Assembly: GCF_014269395.1 (NCBI RefSeq) | Contig: NZ_JACOGK010000013.1 | Span: 6,279 to 70,278 of the forward strand | Length of the DNA: 64,000 nt | Direction: 5' to 3' | From: Megasphaera hominis | GTDB lineage: Bacteria > Bacillota > Negativicutes > Veillonellales > Megasphaeraceae | Part shown: in pieces, positions 2,367 through 7,005 of the stretch | Layout: each line of letters begins with the position of its first letter | Position numbering within the stretch: position 1 is the first letter of the stretch | Made by a program: the position numbers and the translations under genes | Notes under the pieces: model-generated | Told to the model about the DNA's origin: nothing | Seen by the model: only the letters and a program-made list of their open reading frames with translations | Databases searched by the model: none

Positions 2367-3695
2367 ATGCATATGTGGCAAAAAGAGAATAGGAAATATG
2401 GCTTTGTTCATAAAGGCCTCGTGCTGATTGCTGCCTTGGCTGGTGTAGTCGTTCTAGGCGGTTGCGGTACGATAAAAGCAGATTTAACCTTTCATGATGA
2501 TGGCACGATTACATCGAGTACTTCCTTTTCCGTCAATGATTCCGTACGGAATCTTTACCCTCAAATTATGAATGAACTCAAGAAAATGGAAGATGAAGAA
2601 CGGGCCAATGGCAATGAAATTAAGAAAATTCATAATGGCTTTAGTGAGACTGCCGTGCATAGTGATATCCAATCTTTAGTCGATAATGGCGGGGAAATCT
2701 ACCGGGATAATGGTCCGGGCAGCGTGCGCTATCGCAAGGGAGTACTGTATGATATGTATTCCCTCCATTTGGGACTTCAGGGAAAGGAATCATCAATGCC
2801 TGGCATGAATGATTTATATGGCATGGATGCGTTATATGGGGCTATGCTACAAAGCACCTATGAGTCAGCTAAATTTGATTATCGTATTACCTTGCCTCAG
2901 TCTGCTGACGCCACAAACGCTAAGAACGTAAGCGCAGATCAACGGACCTATACATGGGATCTCAAACCGGCACTTTTTGGTCAGCAGGATGTGAAGGTGA
3001 ATATTGATTTTAGAATATATCACAAGAATGTGCTCTATGCCTTTGCCGGTATCGGTGCTATTCTGCTTATTTGTGCGCTCGTATGCTTTATTTATGGCAT
3101 CATGAATAAAACGGACGCTGTCAGAAAAAAACAGCTTTTCATAGTGGCAGGAGTGTTATTGGCAATTGTTTTGTGTGGCGGTGGCTACATCAAGTATATG
3201 CTTGATAATCCGCCTGTGTTAACAGCCGCTGATAATATCATCAAAACAGGTACCAGCACAGCTGTAAATACGGATACGCAGGCAGGAACCGATAAGAAGG
3301 ACGGGACGGATCAAACCGCCCAGACGGCTAGTAAGCCGGCAGTACCCCTTTCTCCGGCTGAAAAAACGTTGCAAGCCTATTACAAGAACATTACGCAGAA
3401 AAATTACCGTACTGCCTATGATATGATGACACCGGAACTGCAGCAGCAAATTGGTGCATATGAAGACTATGCTGCTGGATATAAAACGACGATTTCCAGT
3501 GAAGTATCGAATATGAAAGTGATATCTTCATCTGCTACCAGTGCGAAGCTGGAATTTACCTTAACGGCCAGAGATACAGATAATGGCGGCGTAAAGGTAC
3601 AGTACTTTGCCGGTCAGGCCACGTTGTCTAATGTAAATGGTGTATGGAAAATCAGTGATACATCTGTTAGTAAGACTGGCGAAGCCAGAGAATAA
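2367..3695 (+). CDS. LppM-like lipoprotein with two membrane segments and NTF2-like tail
   Basis: 442 residues. The ATG at 2367 is chosen because AGAAGG lies six bases upstream; the in-frame ATG at 2331 has no ribosome site. A hydrophobic signal ends in a lipobox (VVLGGC), so the protein should be lipidated. The next ~180 residues resemble LppM/DUF3153 domains (DLTFHDDGTI pattern). Two transmembrane helices follow (around 220-245 and 255-275), then a Thr/Ala/Asp-rich linker and a ~110-residue C-terminal domain of the DUF4878/NTF2-like kind (TLQAYYKNI...YRTAYDMM). First gene of a four-gene membrane cluster with two zinc-ribbon proteins. Function unknown; domain labels are moderate. Confidence 0.75.
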   Translation: MHMWQKENRKYGFVHKGLVLIAALAGVVVLGGCGTIKADLTFHDDGTITSSTSFSVNDSVRNLYPQIMNELKKMEDEERANGNEIKKIHNGFSETAVHSDIQSLVDNGGEIYRDNGPGSVRYRKGVLYDMYSLHLGLQGKESSMPGMNDLYGMDALYGAMLQSTYESAKFDYRITLPQSADATNAKNVSADQRTYTWDLKPALFGQQDVKVNIDFRIYHKNVLYAFAGIGAILLICALVCFIYGIMNKTDAVRKKQLFIVAGVLLAIVLCGGGYIKYMLDNPPVLTAADNIIKTGTSTAVNTDTQAGTDKKDGTDQTAQTASKPAVPLSPAEKTLQAYYKNITQKNYRTAYDMMTPELQQQIGAYEDYAAGYKTTISSEVSNMKVISSSATSAKLEFTLTARDTDNGGVKVQYFAGQATLSNVNGVWKISDTSVSKTGEARE

Positions 3696-3728
3696 TACTA
3701 GTTTGGCTATGTAGAAGAGGTGAGCATA

Positions 3729-5783
3729 ATGAGTAAGCAATGTACCAATTGTGGGGCTGCCATTCCAGACAACAGTAAATTTTGTGAATTTTGTGGTAAG
3801 CCTGTAGAAGCAGAAAAAAAGAAACAACCTGTTTGCCTGCATTGTGGTGCGCCTATTGCCAAGGGGGACGCCTTTTGTACGGCCTGCGGTACGCCGGTAG
3901 AGGCCCCGGTGGAAGAGGAAAAAGCAGAGAAAAAACAGCCATCTGTACCGGAAGAAACGTCTCCTGCAGCAGAGGAACCCTTAAAAATCGTCAAATTGCA
4001 GGAGCCGGAAACGGAACCGGTACAGGAAAATGATGCTCCTTTGGAAAACGTGCATACGAGCGGGCCGGAACAGGATACGGCATCAGCGAAAGAACCGGCA
4101 GCCAATGGGAGCACACGTGCGTATTGCCAAACCTGCGGTGCCCCACTTGCAGCAGACGATAAGTTTTGTATGGCCTGTGGCACCCCGGTAGCAGCAATGG
4201 CTAGTGGGCAGGAAGTGGTCACAACAGCGGCAGAAGAACCGCTACACACAGTGAAGCTGGCAGACGATGTGCCGGCGCAAGGACCGGAAGCTAAAGAAAA
4301 TGCTGTTACGCACTGCCCGTCTTGCGGCGCTGTGCTTGCAGCAGAAGATAAATTTTGCACGGCCTGTGGCGCCCCGGTAGCAGCAACGGCTAGCGAGCAA
4401 GAAGTGGTCACAGCAGCGGCAGAAGAACCGCTGCACACTGTGAAGTTGGCAGACGATGTGCCGGCACAAGGATCGGAAACTAAAGAAAATGCTGTTACGC
4501 ACTGCCTGTCTTGTGGTGCCGTGCTCGCGGCAGACGATAAATTTTGTACGATCTGTGGTGCCCCGATAGCAGCAACGGCTAGCGGACAGGAAGCGGTCAG
4601 CGCAGCGGCAGAAGAACCGCTGCACACTGTGAAGCAGGCAGACGATGTGCCGGCGCAGGGACCGGAAGCTAAAGGAAATGCTGTTACGCACTGCCCGTCT
4701 TGCGGCGCCGTGCTTGCGGCAGGCGATAAATTTTGCACGACCTGTGGTGCCCCAGTAGCAGCAACGGCGAGCGGGCAGGAAGCAGTCACAGCAGTGGCAG
4801 AAGAACCGCTGCATATCGTGAAGCAGGCAGAGGATGTGCCGGCGCAGGGACCGGAAGCTAAAGGAAATGCTGTTACGCACTGCCCGTCTTGCGGCGCCGT
4901 GCTTGCGGCAGGCGATAAATTTTGCACGACCTGTGGTGTCCCAGTAGCAGCAACGGCGAGCGGGCAGGAAGCAGTCAGCGCAGCGGCAGAAGAACCGCTG
5001 CATATCGTGAAGCTGGCAGACGATGTGCCGGCGCAGGGAACGGAATTTAAAGAGACTGCTGTTACGCACTGCCCGTCTTGCGGCGCTGTGCTTGCAGCAG
5101 ATGATACATTTTGCACGACTTGTGGCGCACCTGTAGAAGCAAAGCCGGCTGTTCCGGAAGCAGCTGCAACTTCGAAGACGCTGTATTGCCATTCTTGTGG
5201 GGCCGTAGTGAATGCAGGTGATACATTTTGTGCTTCCTGCGGAGCACCTATACGTGCGGTTTCTAAAGTAAGACAGGGGAATGACCCGTTGCCTGTCGTA
5301 CACTTACATGATGAAATACCGCCTCATACAGGATCGTCTGGGCAGCCAGGTACAGGTAGCGCTGGCGTGCCGCCTGTAGCGGATGGAGCAGAACTGTTGG
5401 TAAAAAACATCAAGCCCCTTCTTTCTGTCATCGCCGCTATCGCTGCTATTTTGTTTCTATTATTCAAGTTTTCCAGTGGCGGAGCCGTCCAGGAAGTAAA
5501 AGAAATGAAATTTCATGATTTTAGCACGACCGTCACAATCGGCCAGGCCTTCGATCGCCGCTTTGAAGAGGAGGACTGGAGTTCAGAAGGTTCGGGCAAG
5601 GTTAAAACTGTCATTTTTAAGGGGAGAGATAAGGATACGGGTAAAATGTGGAAGGTCTACTTTAAAGTAACGGAAGGAAAAGAGTATTACCAGTGTGAAG
5701 TTACTAAAATTGTAGTGGACCAAACGGTATCGACGAACAATTGGGATGTGGGCAGGCTTTTGACCTATATTTATGACGGTTAA
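3729..5783 (+). CDS. Membrane protein with nine zinc-ribbon repeats
   Basis: 684 residues, starting at the ATG at 3729 with GAGGTG seven bases upstream. It carries nine double-CxxC zinc ribbons (pattern CxxCGxxxxxxxxFCxxCGxP): the first two lie close together, the rest are spaced by a Glu/Ala/Val-rich linker, giving a 63-residue repeat. One transmembrane helix (about 564-581) follows, then a ~95-residue C-terminal domain of unknown type, presumably outside the membrane. The ribbons would be cytoplasmic. Zinc ribbons plus a membrane helix are common in bacterial proteins of unknown function, but nine near-identical copies is extreme. Neighbours are membrane proteins, one with another zinc ribbon. 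A metal-binding or protein-docking array is plausible, unproven. Confidence 0.85.
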   Translation: MSKQCTNCGAAIPDNSKFCEFCGKPVEAEKKKQPVCLHCGAPIAKGDAFCTACGTPVEAPVEEEKAEKKQPSVPEETSPAAEEPLKIVKLQEPETEPVQENDAPLENVHTSGPEQDTASAKEPAANGSTRAYCQTCGAPLAADDKFCMACGTPVAAMASGQEVVTTAAEEPLHTVKLADDVPAQGPEAKENAVTHCPSCGAVLAAEDKFCTACGAPVAATASEQEVVTAAAEEPLHTVKLADDVPAQGSETKENAVTHCLSCGAVLAADDKFCTICGAPIAATASGQEAVSAAAEEPLHTVKQADDVPAQGPEAKGNAVTHCPSCGAVLAAGDKFCTTCGAPVAATASGQEAVTAVAEEPLHIVKQAEDVPAQGPEAKGNAVTHCPSCGAVLAAGDKFCTTCGVPVAATASGQEAVSAAAEEPLHIVKLADDVPAQGTEFKETAVTHCPSCGAVLAADDTFCTTCGAPVEAKPAVPEAAATSKTLYCHSCGAVVNAGDTFCASCGAPIRAVSKVRQGNDPLPVVHLHDEIPPHTGSSGQPGTGSAGVPPVADGAELLVKNIKPLLSVIAAIAAILFLLFKFSSGGAVQEVKEMKFHDFSTTVTIGQAFDRRFEEEDWSSEGSGKVKTVIFKGRDKDTGKMWKVYFKVTEGKEYYQCEVTKIVVDQTVSTNNWDVGRLLTYIYDG
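4122..5255 (+). repeat. Tandem 189-bp in-frame repeats
   Basis: Equivalent Cys-codon positions recur at 4122, 4311, 4500, 4689, 4878 and 5067, exactly 189 bp apart, with strong DNA identity between the middle units. The unit is in frame (63 codons) and encodes one zinc ribbon plus linker; the last copy is diverged and incomplete. The array likely changes copy number by recombination or slippage. The lack of stops on the opposite strand is a by-product of the repeat. Confidence 0.92.
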
Positions 5784-5802
5784 TATATGAAGGGATGATA
5801 CA

Positions 5803-6399
5803 ATGATATTTTTTGCACTAATACTGAACGGCGTTATCAGTTTTTTCAATGCCCGTGTAGCCGGAAAGATTTGGGCTGAATCAAAGGGCATTGGCGGCAA
5901 CGTGCGCATTATGGCGTGGTGCGCTGCTATTCAATCAGCCATTGGTTTTTCTTACATTTACATCACAATTTTGGTATATGCGTGCAGCGCTCTCCATATA
6001 TTGTCCCATAGTGGCATCAATTTTATGACCAGCCTGACCTATGTATTTCTGATTGTCCCTTTGCTGGGGACGGGCATTATTATTACCATTCAGTCCTGGA
6101 TACAGGCGTCACGGGAAAAATCCCTGCTTTCCATGGGCGTAGCCGGCTGGAATACTTTTGCTACGGCATATAATCTGTACCATGCCATCCAGTCCTTTGG
6201 CCCGGCTTGGGAAATGGCTACGAAAGGTATTTCGGACATCTTTTCCGGCGATGATGATGACGACGAAGACAGTGTCGTACTGGCACTGGTTATCTTAGCG
6301 CTATTGGCCGGTGTCATGACGACAAAAATTATTATGAATGTGTATACAGCCAGTCTGCCTGTATCGAGAACGGTACGGCAGCGGTATGAAACAATGTGA
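5803..6399 (+). CDS. Polytopic membrane protein, unknown function
   Basis: 198 residues, no family recognised. Hydrophobic stretches fit about four or five transmembrane helices (near 1-20, 38-60, 75-102 and 158-178). A very acidic patch, DDDDDEDS, sits before the last helix. GAAGGG precedes the ATG. It lies 19 bp after the nine-zinc-ribbon gene, and its stop overlaps the ribosome site of the next gene, so it is surely co-translated with the cluster. Confidence 0.7.
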   Translation: MIFFALILNGVISFFNARVAGKIWAESKGIGGNVRIMAWCAAIQSAIGFSYIYITILVYACSALHILSHSGINFMTSLTYVFLIVPLLGTGIIITIQSWIQASREKSLLSMGVAGWNTFATAYNLYHAIQSFGPAWEMATKGISDIFSGDDDDDEDSVVLALVILALLAGVMTTKIIMNVYTASLPVSRTVRQRYETM

Positions 6400-6412
6400 G
6401 GAGGAATCTGTT

Positions 6413-6934
6413 ATGAGTAAGTTTTGTTCCCAATGTGGAACCCCGCTTTCTGAAGGGGCACGCTTTTGTCCCTCCTGTGGTGCTCCGGTACAGGGAGAGG
6501 TTGCAGTTCAGCCTGCCTATGAAAATAACGCCGTACCTGCCTATGGCAACACGCCAGATGTAGTGGAAATGCAGTGGAATGGTTATGTAGAAGATAAAAC
6601 CATCAAAGCGATGTTCTTTACGAGTAAAGGCCGGCTAAACAGGAAGCGGTATATTATGCGCAGTTTAATGCTTCTGCCGGTATCCATGATAGGGATGCTC
6701 CTGATTTATACTATGGTGACTCCCCTCATAGTAATTGGCTTCCTGCTCATCCTGTCCTTGTGCATCCCCAATGTGCTGTTGGCTATCCGCCGCTGCCATG
6801 ATTTGAACCGGTCAGGATATTTCTACTTACTTACGGCTGTTCCGATTGCCAATATTATTGTTCCCCTAATGCTGTTGTTTCAAAAGGGATCGACAGGCCC
6901 GAATCAATATGGTCCTGATCCTCTTGGCAACTAA
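6413..6934 (+). CDS. Zinc-ribbon DUF805 membrane protein
   Basis: 173 residues. The ATG at 6413 follows GAGGAGG; longer in-frame starts would run into the previous gene. The N-terminus is a zinc ribbon (CSQCG...FCPSCGAPV) matching the repeats of the large upstream protein. After a Pro/Asn linker comes a DUF805 domain: SKGRLNRKRY, hydrophobic helices, the IRRCHDLNRSG motif and a final PNQYGPDP. DUF805 proteins are small inner-membrane proteins of unknown role. Last gene of the cluster, followed by an inverted repeat at 6957-6997. Domain call is strong; role unknown. Confidence 0.88.
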   Translation: MSKFCSQCGTPLSEGARFCPSCGAPVQGEVAVQPAYENNAVPAYGNTPDVVEMQWNGYVEDKTIKAMFFTSKGRLNRKRYIMRSLMLLPVSMIGMLLIYTMVTPLIVIGFLLILSLCIPNVLLAIRRCHDLNRSGYFYLLTAVPIANIIVPLMLLFQKGSTGPNQYGPDPLGN

Positions 6935-6956
6935 GGGGAATTAGCAGTTTCTATAA

Positions 6957-6997
6957 ACATCGTACAATTATGTAATAAATGCATGATTGTACGATGT
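6957..6997 (+). terminator. Terminator-like inverted repeat after zinc-ribbon cluster
   Basis: Perfect 12-bp arms ACATCGTACAAT / ATTGTACGATGT around a 17-base loop, followed by TATTTTATTT. Likely ends the four-gene transcript, although the stem is AT-rich. Confidence 0.65.
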
Positions 6998-7005
6998 TAT
7001 TTTAT

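What the first reader, a model, noticed from the sequence alone, without database searches (positions are those of the whole stretch)
2367..6934. Uncharacterised four-gene zinc-ribbon envelope system
A lipoprotein with two helices and an NTF2-like tail, a protein with nine zinc ribbons and a membrane helix, a polytopic protein with an acidic patch, and a zinc-ribbon-DUF805 protein are packed together. The same ribbon type occurs in two of the four. Together they look like a membrane complex with a cytoplasmic zinc-binding array; no role is known.
Basis: partly seen in the sequence, partly recalled or inferred. Interest (0 to 1): 0.7.

Follow-up and report, generated by a model that had tools for sequence, protein, structure and literature searches.

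The report
Zinc-ribbon envelope gene neighbourhood, Negativicutes
Four neighbouring genes of a bacterium apparently related to Megasphaera encode membrane proteins, three of them from families that repeatedly sit together in related bacteria, probably as a so far unnamed system that watches over or organises the cell envelope; what it does has not been tested.

Summary
The four genes are real and packed on one strand (gaps 13-33 bp). The extracytoplasmic domain of gene 2 ("GKAFDKFF" domain, no Pfam match over cut-off) lies within 3 kb of a DUF805 protein at 13 of 25 strong loci (0.14 expected by chance) and of a gene-1-type lipoprotein at 6 of 25 (0.09 expected); 19 of 25 have at least one partner. 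Genes 1, 2 and 4 thus belong to a recurrent envelope neighbourhood that elsewhere also holds ribbon + acidic-tail proteins and, at two loci, a ribbon-PrsW protease. Gene 3 is the outsider: 1 of 30 loci has any of these partners. The nine-ribbon array is a local expansion by 189-bp tandem duplication; the two closest relatives have one and two ribbons. Best reading: an inner-membrane complex with cystatin/NTF2-like and LppM-like domains outside and zinc ribbons inside as docking modules, working like Bacillus YdjG/YdjH. It fails the TcaA and LppM cut-offs. Three paper searches found no description. New variant of a known kind; mechanism inferred.

The parts
2367..3695 (+). Gene 1: 442-aa lipoprotein (Cys codon 2463-2465); LppM-like domain, two hydrophobic helices (about 3024-3116 and 3126-3203), NTF2-like tail (about 3366-3692)
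3720..5783 (+). Gene 2: nine zinc ribbons, one membrane helix (about 5394-5489), C-terminal 'GKAFDKFF' domain (about 5490-5780), leaning to the cystatin/NTF2-like fold by weak match; ATG at 3729 is the likelier start
4146..5142 (+). 189-bp tandem repeat (5.3 copies) spanning part of ribbon 3 to ribbon 8; units 6 and 7 are 93.7% identical (no synonymous, nine non-synonymous codon differences)
5803..6399 (+). Gene 3: five-helix membrane protein of a family without a convincing Pfam match; scattered distribution, usually without the partners seen here
6250..6270 (+). Gene 3 acidic run (DDDDDED) in the loop between helices 4 and 5, predicted outside; 3 or more acidic residues there in 32 of 36 aligned sequences
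6413..6934 (+). Gene 4: one zinc ribbon (about 6425-6481) plus DUF805 membrane domain (about 6614-6916)
6956..6998 (+). Terminator-like hairpin followed by a T-rich stretch, possible end of the transcript

Best explanation
The genes encode an inner-membrane envelope surveillance or scaffold complex of diderm Negativicutes. SHOWN by sequence: the gene families of 1, 2 and 4 recur together, mostly on one strand, in this class; the gene-2 C-domain occurs both behind a membrane helix and behind a lipobox, so it lies outside the cytoplasm and the ribbons inside; the tail of gene 1 recurs on other ribbon-membrane proteins and lipoproteins, and other tails take its place in relatives. INFERRED: the periplasmic cystatin/NTF2-like and LppM-like domains bind an envelope component (lipid, glycan precursor or misfolded protein). 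Binding or damage changes the assembly of the membrane complex, and the cytoplasmic zinc ribbons dock with one another or with soluble ribbon/acidic partners to recruit effectors, much as Bacillus YdjG and YdjH recruit PspA and YdjI. Gene 3 was added to this locus in the Megasphaera lineage as a further membrane subunit. The ribbon array gives many docking sites; its number changes by tandem duplication.
For: Linkage: of 25 strong gene-2-domain loci in 22 genomes, 13 have DUF805 within 3 kb (12 on the same strand; 0.14 expected), 6 a gene-1 N-domain lipoprotein (all same strand; 0.09 expected), 12 another ribbon protein, 19 at least one partner (loci; annotation). With the nine weaker loci put back: DUF805 13 of 34, gene 1 6 of 34, any partner 20 of 34. 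Four of the six gene-1 neighbours were already found with a profile that contained no sequence picked at a gene-2 locus other than the window's own. Compact same-strand runs: L097, L100, L112, L146. Control: 0 of 172 genomes of the class of G302 match the gene-2 profile and 1 of 172 the gene-1 profile (the tool notes that an empty answer alone shows little). Topology: one helix; lipoprotein versions. Fold: gene-2 domain model pLDDT about 90 in the domain; solved folds ranked highest are largely cystatin/NTF2-like, at low Z (best 6.6, 2.5 A over 70 residues, a designed protein). Gene-1 tail family matches the C-terminal stretch of anti-sigma factor RsgI9, E 2.8e-4. [quoted passage not shown] loss of ydjG or ydjH delocalises PspA and deforms cells under alkaline shock (PMC8581546); extracellular NTF2-like domains are joined to zinc ribbons (PMC3924330).
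Confidence: 0.42

Rival explanations
1. The genes are a transmembrane gene-regulation module: ligand binding outside triggers intramembrane cleavage (a PrsW-type protease in relatives), and freed zinc-ribbon parts act on nucleic acid or on a sigma factor.
For: Ribbon-PrsW proteins lie directly beside the gene-2 protein in L112 and L146 (PrsW 77 and 84 bits, cut-off 23.5). The gene-1 tail resembles part of the anti-sigma factor RsgI9. Genes that by eye encode small helix-turn-helix regulators lie next to the locus in L104 (8318-8563) and about 1 kb from it in L107 (6086-6364). PMC3924330 says such ribbons could bind nucleic acids (passages).
Against: A ribbon-PrsW gene was found in 2 of the 39 stretches searched by motif (window included), not in the window. 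The ribbon part of gene 2 is acidic (75 acidic to 34 basic residues in 1-560), which fits nucleic acid binding poorly. Regulator genes beside the loci were not searched for systematically.
Confidence: 0.17
2. The gene 2 array is a zinc store or sensor: nine ribbons under the membrane bind or buffer zinc, and the locus serves metal homeostasis.
Confidence: 0.1
3. The neighbourhood is real but loose: related envelope genes cluster through shared descent and domain shuffling of ribbon-membrane genes, without forming one complex; gene 3 is a chance insertion.
For: Composition of the loci varies strongly, 6 of 25 have no partner, gene 3 lacks the partners in 29 of 30 loci, and gene 1 is unlinked in G015.
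Against: Linkage of different domains (gene-2 domain, DUF805, gene-1 lipoprotein) is far above chance; gene order 2-3-4 is kept in G015 with 54% identity in the gene-2 C-region, 55% in gene 4 and a gene-3 match of 1.2e-97.
Confidence: 0.23
4. An anti-phage defence system of the membrane type.
For: Membrane proteins of unknown role; sporadic distribution of gene 3.
Against: No PADLOC model matches any of the four proteins at E up to 0.01; the scanned flanks are metabolic genes.
Confidence: 0.03

Closest known systems
Bacillus subtilis YdjG (with YdjH, YdjI, PspA)
   Same: Zinc ribbons, membrane segment and a domain with NTF2-like fold in one protein; membrane recruitment and envelope stress (passages of PMC11237479 and PMC8581546)
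   Different: No PspA, SPFH or TPM gene in the seven flanking genes scanned; different ectodomain family; different partners (DUF805, gene-1 lipoprotein)
Staphylococcal TcaA
   Same: N-terminal ribbon, then membrane helix; weak matches of the NCBIfam model to a ribbon stretch of gene 2 (24.6 bits) and to L095 and L112 relatives (26.6 and 20.9 bits)
   Different: Far below the model cut-off (550 bits); ectodomain not matched
LppM domain lipoproteins (PF21946)
   Same: In 3 of 18 genomes the only LppM match (E 0.001-0.009) falls on the gene-1 family frame
   Different: No match reaches the cut-off; in 3 further genomes a weaker match falls elsewhere and 12 have none; 4 of 14 control genomes also ring below cut-off. 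Two helices and a variable tail follow
DUF805 (PF05656) with zinc ribbon
   Same: Gene 4 is a clear member
   Different: No difference found; I know of no established role of DUF805
RsgI9 (anti-sigma-I factor, PDB 7sjy)
   Same: Gene-1 tail family aligns to its C-terminal stretch. A figure legend of PMC12203970 lists an NTF2-like domain among RsgI factors (passage); that it is RsgI9's is recalled
   Different: No anti-sigma domain in gene 1

Membership tests
DUF805 (PF05656) | score over the curated cut-off | tested here: met
   Gene 4, 76.7 bits against 25.7
Zn_Ribbon_1 (PF13240) | score over the curated cut-off, four-cysteine ribbon | tested here: met
   Gene 2, 9 stretches, 193.8 bits; gene 4, 39.5 bits; cut-off 25
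TcaA (NF053815) | equivalog score over cut-off 550 | tested here: not met
   Gene 2 scores 24.6
TcaA (NF053815) | ribbon - membrane helix - ectodomain order (order recalled, not from a call) | tested here: met
YdjG-type PSP partner | operon with pspA, SPFH and TPM genes | tested here: not met
   Seven flanking window genes are rubredoxin, flavodoxin/ODP, GNAT, PTPS, radical SAM, GTP cyclohydrolase I and peptidase S66
YdjG-type PSP partner | ribbons plus NTF2-like domain plus membrane segment | tested here: inconclusive
LppM (PF21946) | score over cut-off 27 | tested here: not met
   Best 19.9 bits in 18 genomes; window gene 1 not listed at E up to 1
NTF2-like superfamily (gene 1 tail) | homology or fold of an NTF2-like domain | tested here: inconclusive
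   Sub-threshold VirB8 and MecA_N; RsgI9 C-terminal stretch E 2.8e-4 over 58 of 128 positions; no structure model of this part was made
Known anti-phage systems (PADLOC) | match to a defence-protein model | tested here: not met
   0 of 4 proteins at E up to 0.01
Envelope stress system | phenotype or induction under envelope stress | not testable with these tools
   needs experiment

The most novel reading that the evidence does not exclude
Negativicutes carry their own, undescribed envelope-surveillance machine in which zinc ribbons serve as a shared cytoplasmic docking code among membrane proteins (gene-2 type, DUF805, PrsW, acidic-tail partner), while the periplasmic sensing domains are freely exchanged, and in this lineage the docking capacity is tuned by tandem duplication of ribbons.
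Probability: 0.27. Interest if true: 0.7.

Novelty: new variant of a known kind. Interest (0 to 1): 0.48.

Why it matters
Negativicutes are diderm members of a largely monoderm phylum (general knowledge), and how they guard their envelope is little studied as far as I know. The work ties two families without a convincing Pfam match (gene 1, the gene-2 domain) and DUF805 into one recurrent neighbourhood, with a third such family (gene 3) added in one lineage, so that a single deletion series could give all of them a first function. It also suggests a use for the common ribbon-membrane proteins.

Tried and rejected

Limits of the counts; 25 loci come from 34 stretches that hold the 37 gene-2-domain rows; rows on one stretch were counted once; six with local E above 1e-12 (L147, L149, L151-L154) and three without a local match (L150, L155, L156) were dropped; of these nine only L147 has a partner (a ribbon gene). 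L001 and L038 were in the seed alignment and match by construction. The local DUF805 profile was made from three sequences. The gene-1 alignment A5 contains four sequences picked at gene-2 loci, so counts lean to linked copies. The ribbon pattern misses variants (for example L098 5940-6545) and, also rings on one frame of L020 (12351-12698) about 5 kb from gene 3. In one search nine of the 30 loci have shorter flanks than 8 kb on a side.

Full report
OBSERVATION. The flanks scanned are unrelated: rubredoxin and flavodoxin/ODP upstream; GNAT, PTPS, radical SAM, GTP cyclohydrolase I and peptidase S66 downstream. Gene 2 carries nine ribbons with identical spacing. Most of the array is a 189-bp DNA tandem repeat; units 6 and 7 are 93.7% identical (no synonymous, nine non-synonymous codon differences), the other pairs of units 3-7 81-90%. 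The array therefore grew by duplication, some of it probably recent.

WHAT THE PROTEINS ARE. Gene 1 is a lipoprotein whose N-domain has no convincing Pfam match. With the LppM model, 6 of 18 genomes gave a match at E up to 1, none over the cut-off: in three (G231, G203, G243; E 0.001-0.009) it falls on the gene-1 family frame, in three (E 0.07-0.43) elsewhere; 4 of 14 control genomes ring too, below cut-off. The LppM link is thus suggestive only. After two helices the relatives aligned carry another tail than the window's; the window's tail recurs in ribbon-membrane proteins of L040, L041 and L042 and in a lipoprotein of L103, and the tail family matches the C-terminal stretch of RsgI9 (E 2.8e-4). 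Gene 2 ends in a domain with the motif GKAFDKFF, without a Pfam match over cut-off in the window protein and without a PDB match by profile up to E 10. It also occurs behind a lipobox and in L098 is followed by a stretch with sub-threshold CAP_assoc_N and BamE matches. Its model (mean pLDDT 82.7, about 90 in the domain) leans to the cystatin/NTF2-like fold at low scores. Gene 3 is modelled with five long helices (pLDDT 89.3); 36 family members give no convincing Pfam match. Its acidic loop is predicted outside, and 32 of 36 sequences have three or more acidic residues there. Gene 4 is ribbon plus DUF805.

LINKAGE ELSEWHERE. The collection scan with the gene-3 family gave 30 loci; profiles for the partner families find them beside gene 3 in one, L001 of a Megasphaera MAG. 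Of 61 genomes in that genome's order, two hold gene 3. In the other, G015, genes 2, 3 and 4 lie in the window's order with only two ribbons, while the gene-1 homologue is about 420 kb away. In L001 the order is DUF805, gene 2 with one ribbon, gene 3, another ribbon protein. In 300 genomes of the class the gene-2 domain occurs in 30, gene 3 in 23, DUF805 in 215 and the gene-1 profile in 94, mostly as partial matches in the rows listed. Six genomes hold both gene 3 and the gene-2 domain; they are adjacent in two and on different contigs in four.

The gene-2 domain, in contrast, often has company. Of 25 strong loci, 13 have DUF805 within 3 kb (12 same strand), 6 a gene-1 N-domain, 12 another ribbon protein, 2 gene 3, and 19 at least one partner other than gene 3; 0.14 and 0.09 are expected by chance for DUF805 and gene 1. 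With nine weaker loci put back the figures are 13, 6 and 20 of 34. Four of the six gene-1 neighbours were found with a profile made before any of these loci was known. Seen from gene 1, 5 of 8 near full-length matches lie within 1.2 kb of the gene-2 domain, but four of those five were seeds picked at such loci; of the three others that were not seeds one is linked, so this second count is weak. Two further partner types recur: ribbon proteins with a strongly acidic tail in L095, L096, L097, L100 and L146, and ribbon-PrsW proteases in L112 and L146 (39 stretches searched; PrsW by Pfam). As a control, 0 of 172 and 1 of 172 genomes of the class of G302 match the two profiles.

READING. The neighbourhood is real and centred on the gene-2 domain, with the gene-1 lipoprotein and ribbon-DUF805 as frequent partners; gene 3 looks like a lineage-specific addition. 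Ectodomains are exchanged among lipoproteins and ribbon-membrane proteins, while cytoplasmic ribbons recur. That pattern suggests sensing or binding in the periplasm and a common docking mode inside. The nearest studied case I found is YdjG of Bacillus subtilis (two ribbons, NTF2-like fold, TM segment; passage of PMC11237479), which with YdjH is needed to bring PspA and YdjI to the membrane and to keep cell shape under alkaline shock (passages of PMC8581546). Extracellular NTF2-like domains joined to zinc ribbons were noted in PMC3924330 (passages). TcaA is a ribbon protein too (passage of PMC10611510), but gene 2 falls far below its model. A regulatory role remains possible: PrsW-type proteases at two loci, and by eye helix-turn-helix genes beside L104 and near L107. 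The window is not a member of YdjG, TcaA or LppM families by the tests made; it is proposed to work like the first.

NOVELTY. In the held library no paper holds DUF805 together with zinc ribbon, none combines zinc ribbon, Negativicutes, membrane protein and uncharacterized, and one holds PrsW with zinc ribbon, by title on another matter; most subscription papers are not in that library. The kind (ribbon-helix-ectodomain proteins) is known; the neighbourhood, the gene-2 domain and its partners appear undescribed there. The function remains inferred.

Noticed in passing
L157 5425-10297 and L159 5982-8356: In two genomes of the same order, five and three DUF805 genes, some with a ribbon, stand in tandem downstream of what look by eye like tryptophan biosynthesis genes, with a lipoprotein-like gene next to them.
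   Followed up: partly
L040 8875-10920 and L041 676-2727: A protein of about 680 aa combines N-terminal membrane helices, two ribbons, a further helix and the gene-1 tail domain: a fused version of parts of this neighbourhood.
   Followed up: partly
L042 8946-11013: Three consecutive ribbon-membrane genes with different ectodomains, one with the gene-1 tail.
   Followed up: no
L025 3416-8891 and L030 6449-12633: In two MAGs (titles Bradyrhizobium and Hyphomicrobiales) the gene-3 homologue lies among genes that by eye look like LPS/KDO synthesis genes; in the class of G302 the family was found in 1 of 337 genomes, so it may be horizontally acquired there.
   Followed up: partly
L002 2727-6216: Gene 3 between what look by eye like a polysaccharide pyruvyl transferase and FtsE/FtsX genes, another envelope context.
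   Followed up: no
L104 8318-8563 and L107 6086-6364: Small genes that by eye encode helix-turn-helix regulators beside or about 1 kb from the gene-2-domain gene.
   Followed up: no
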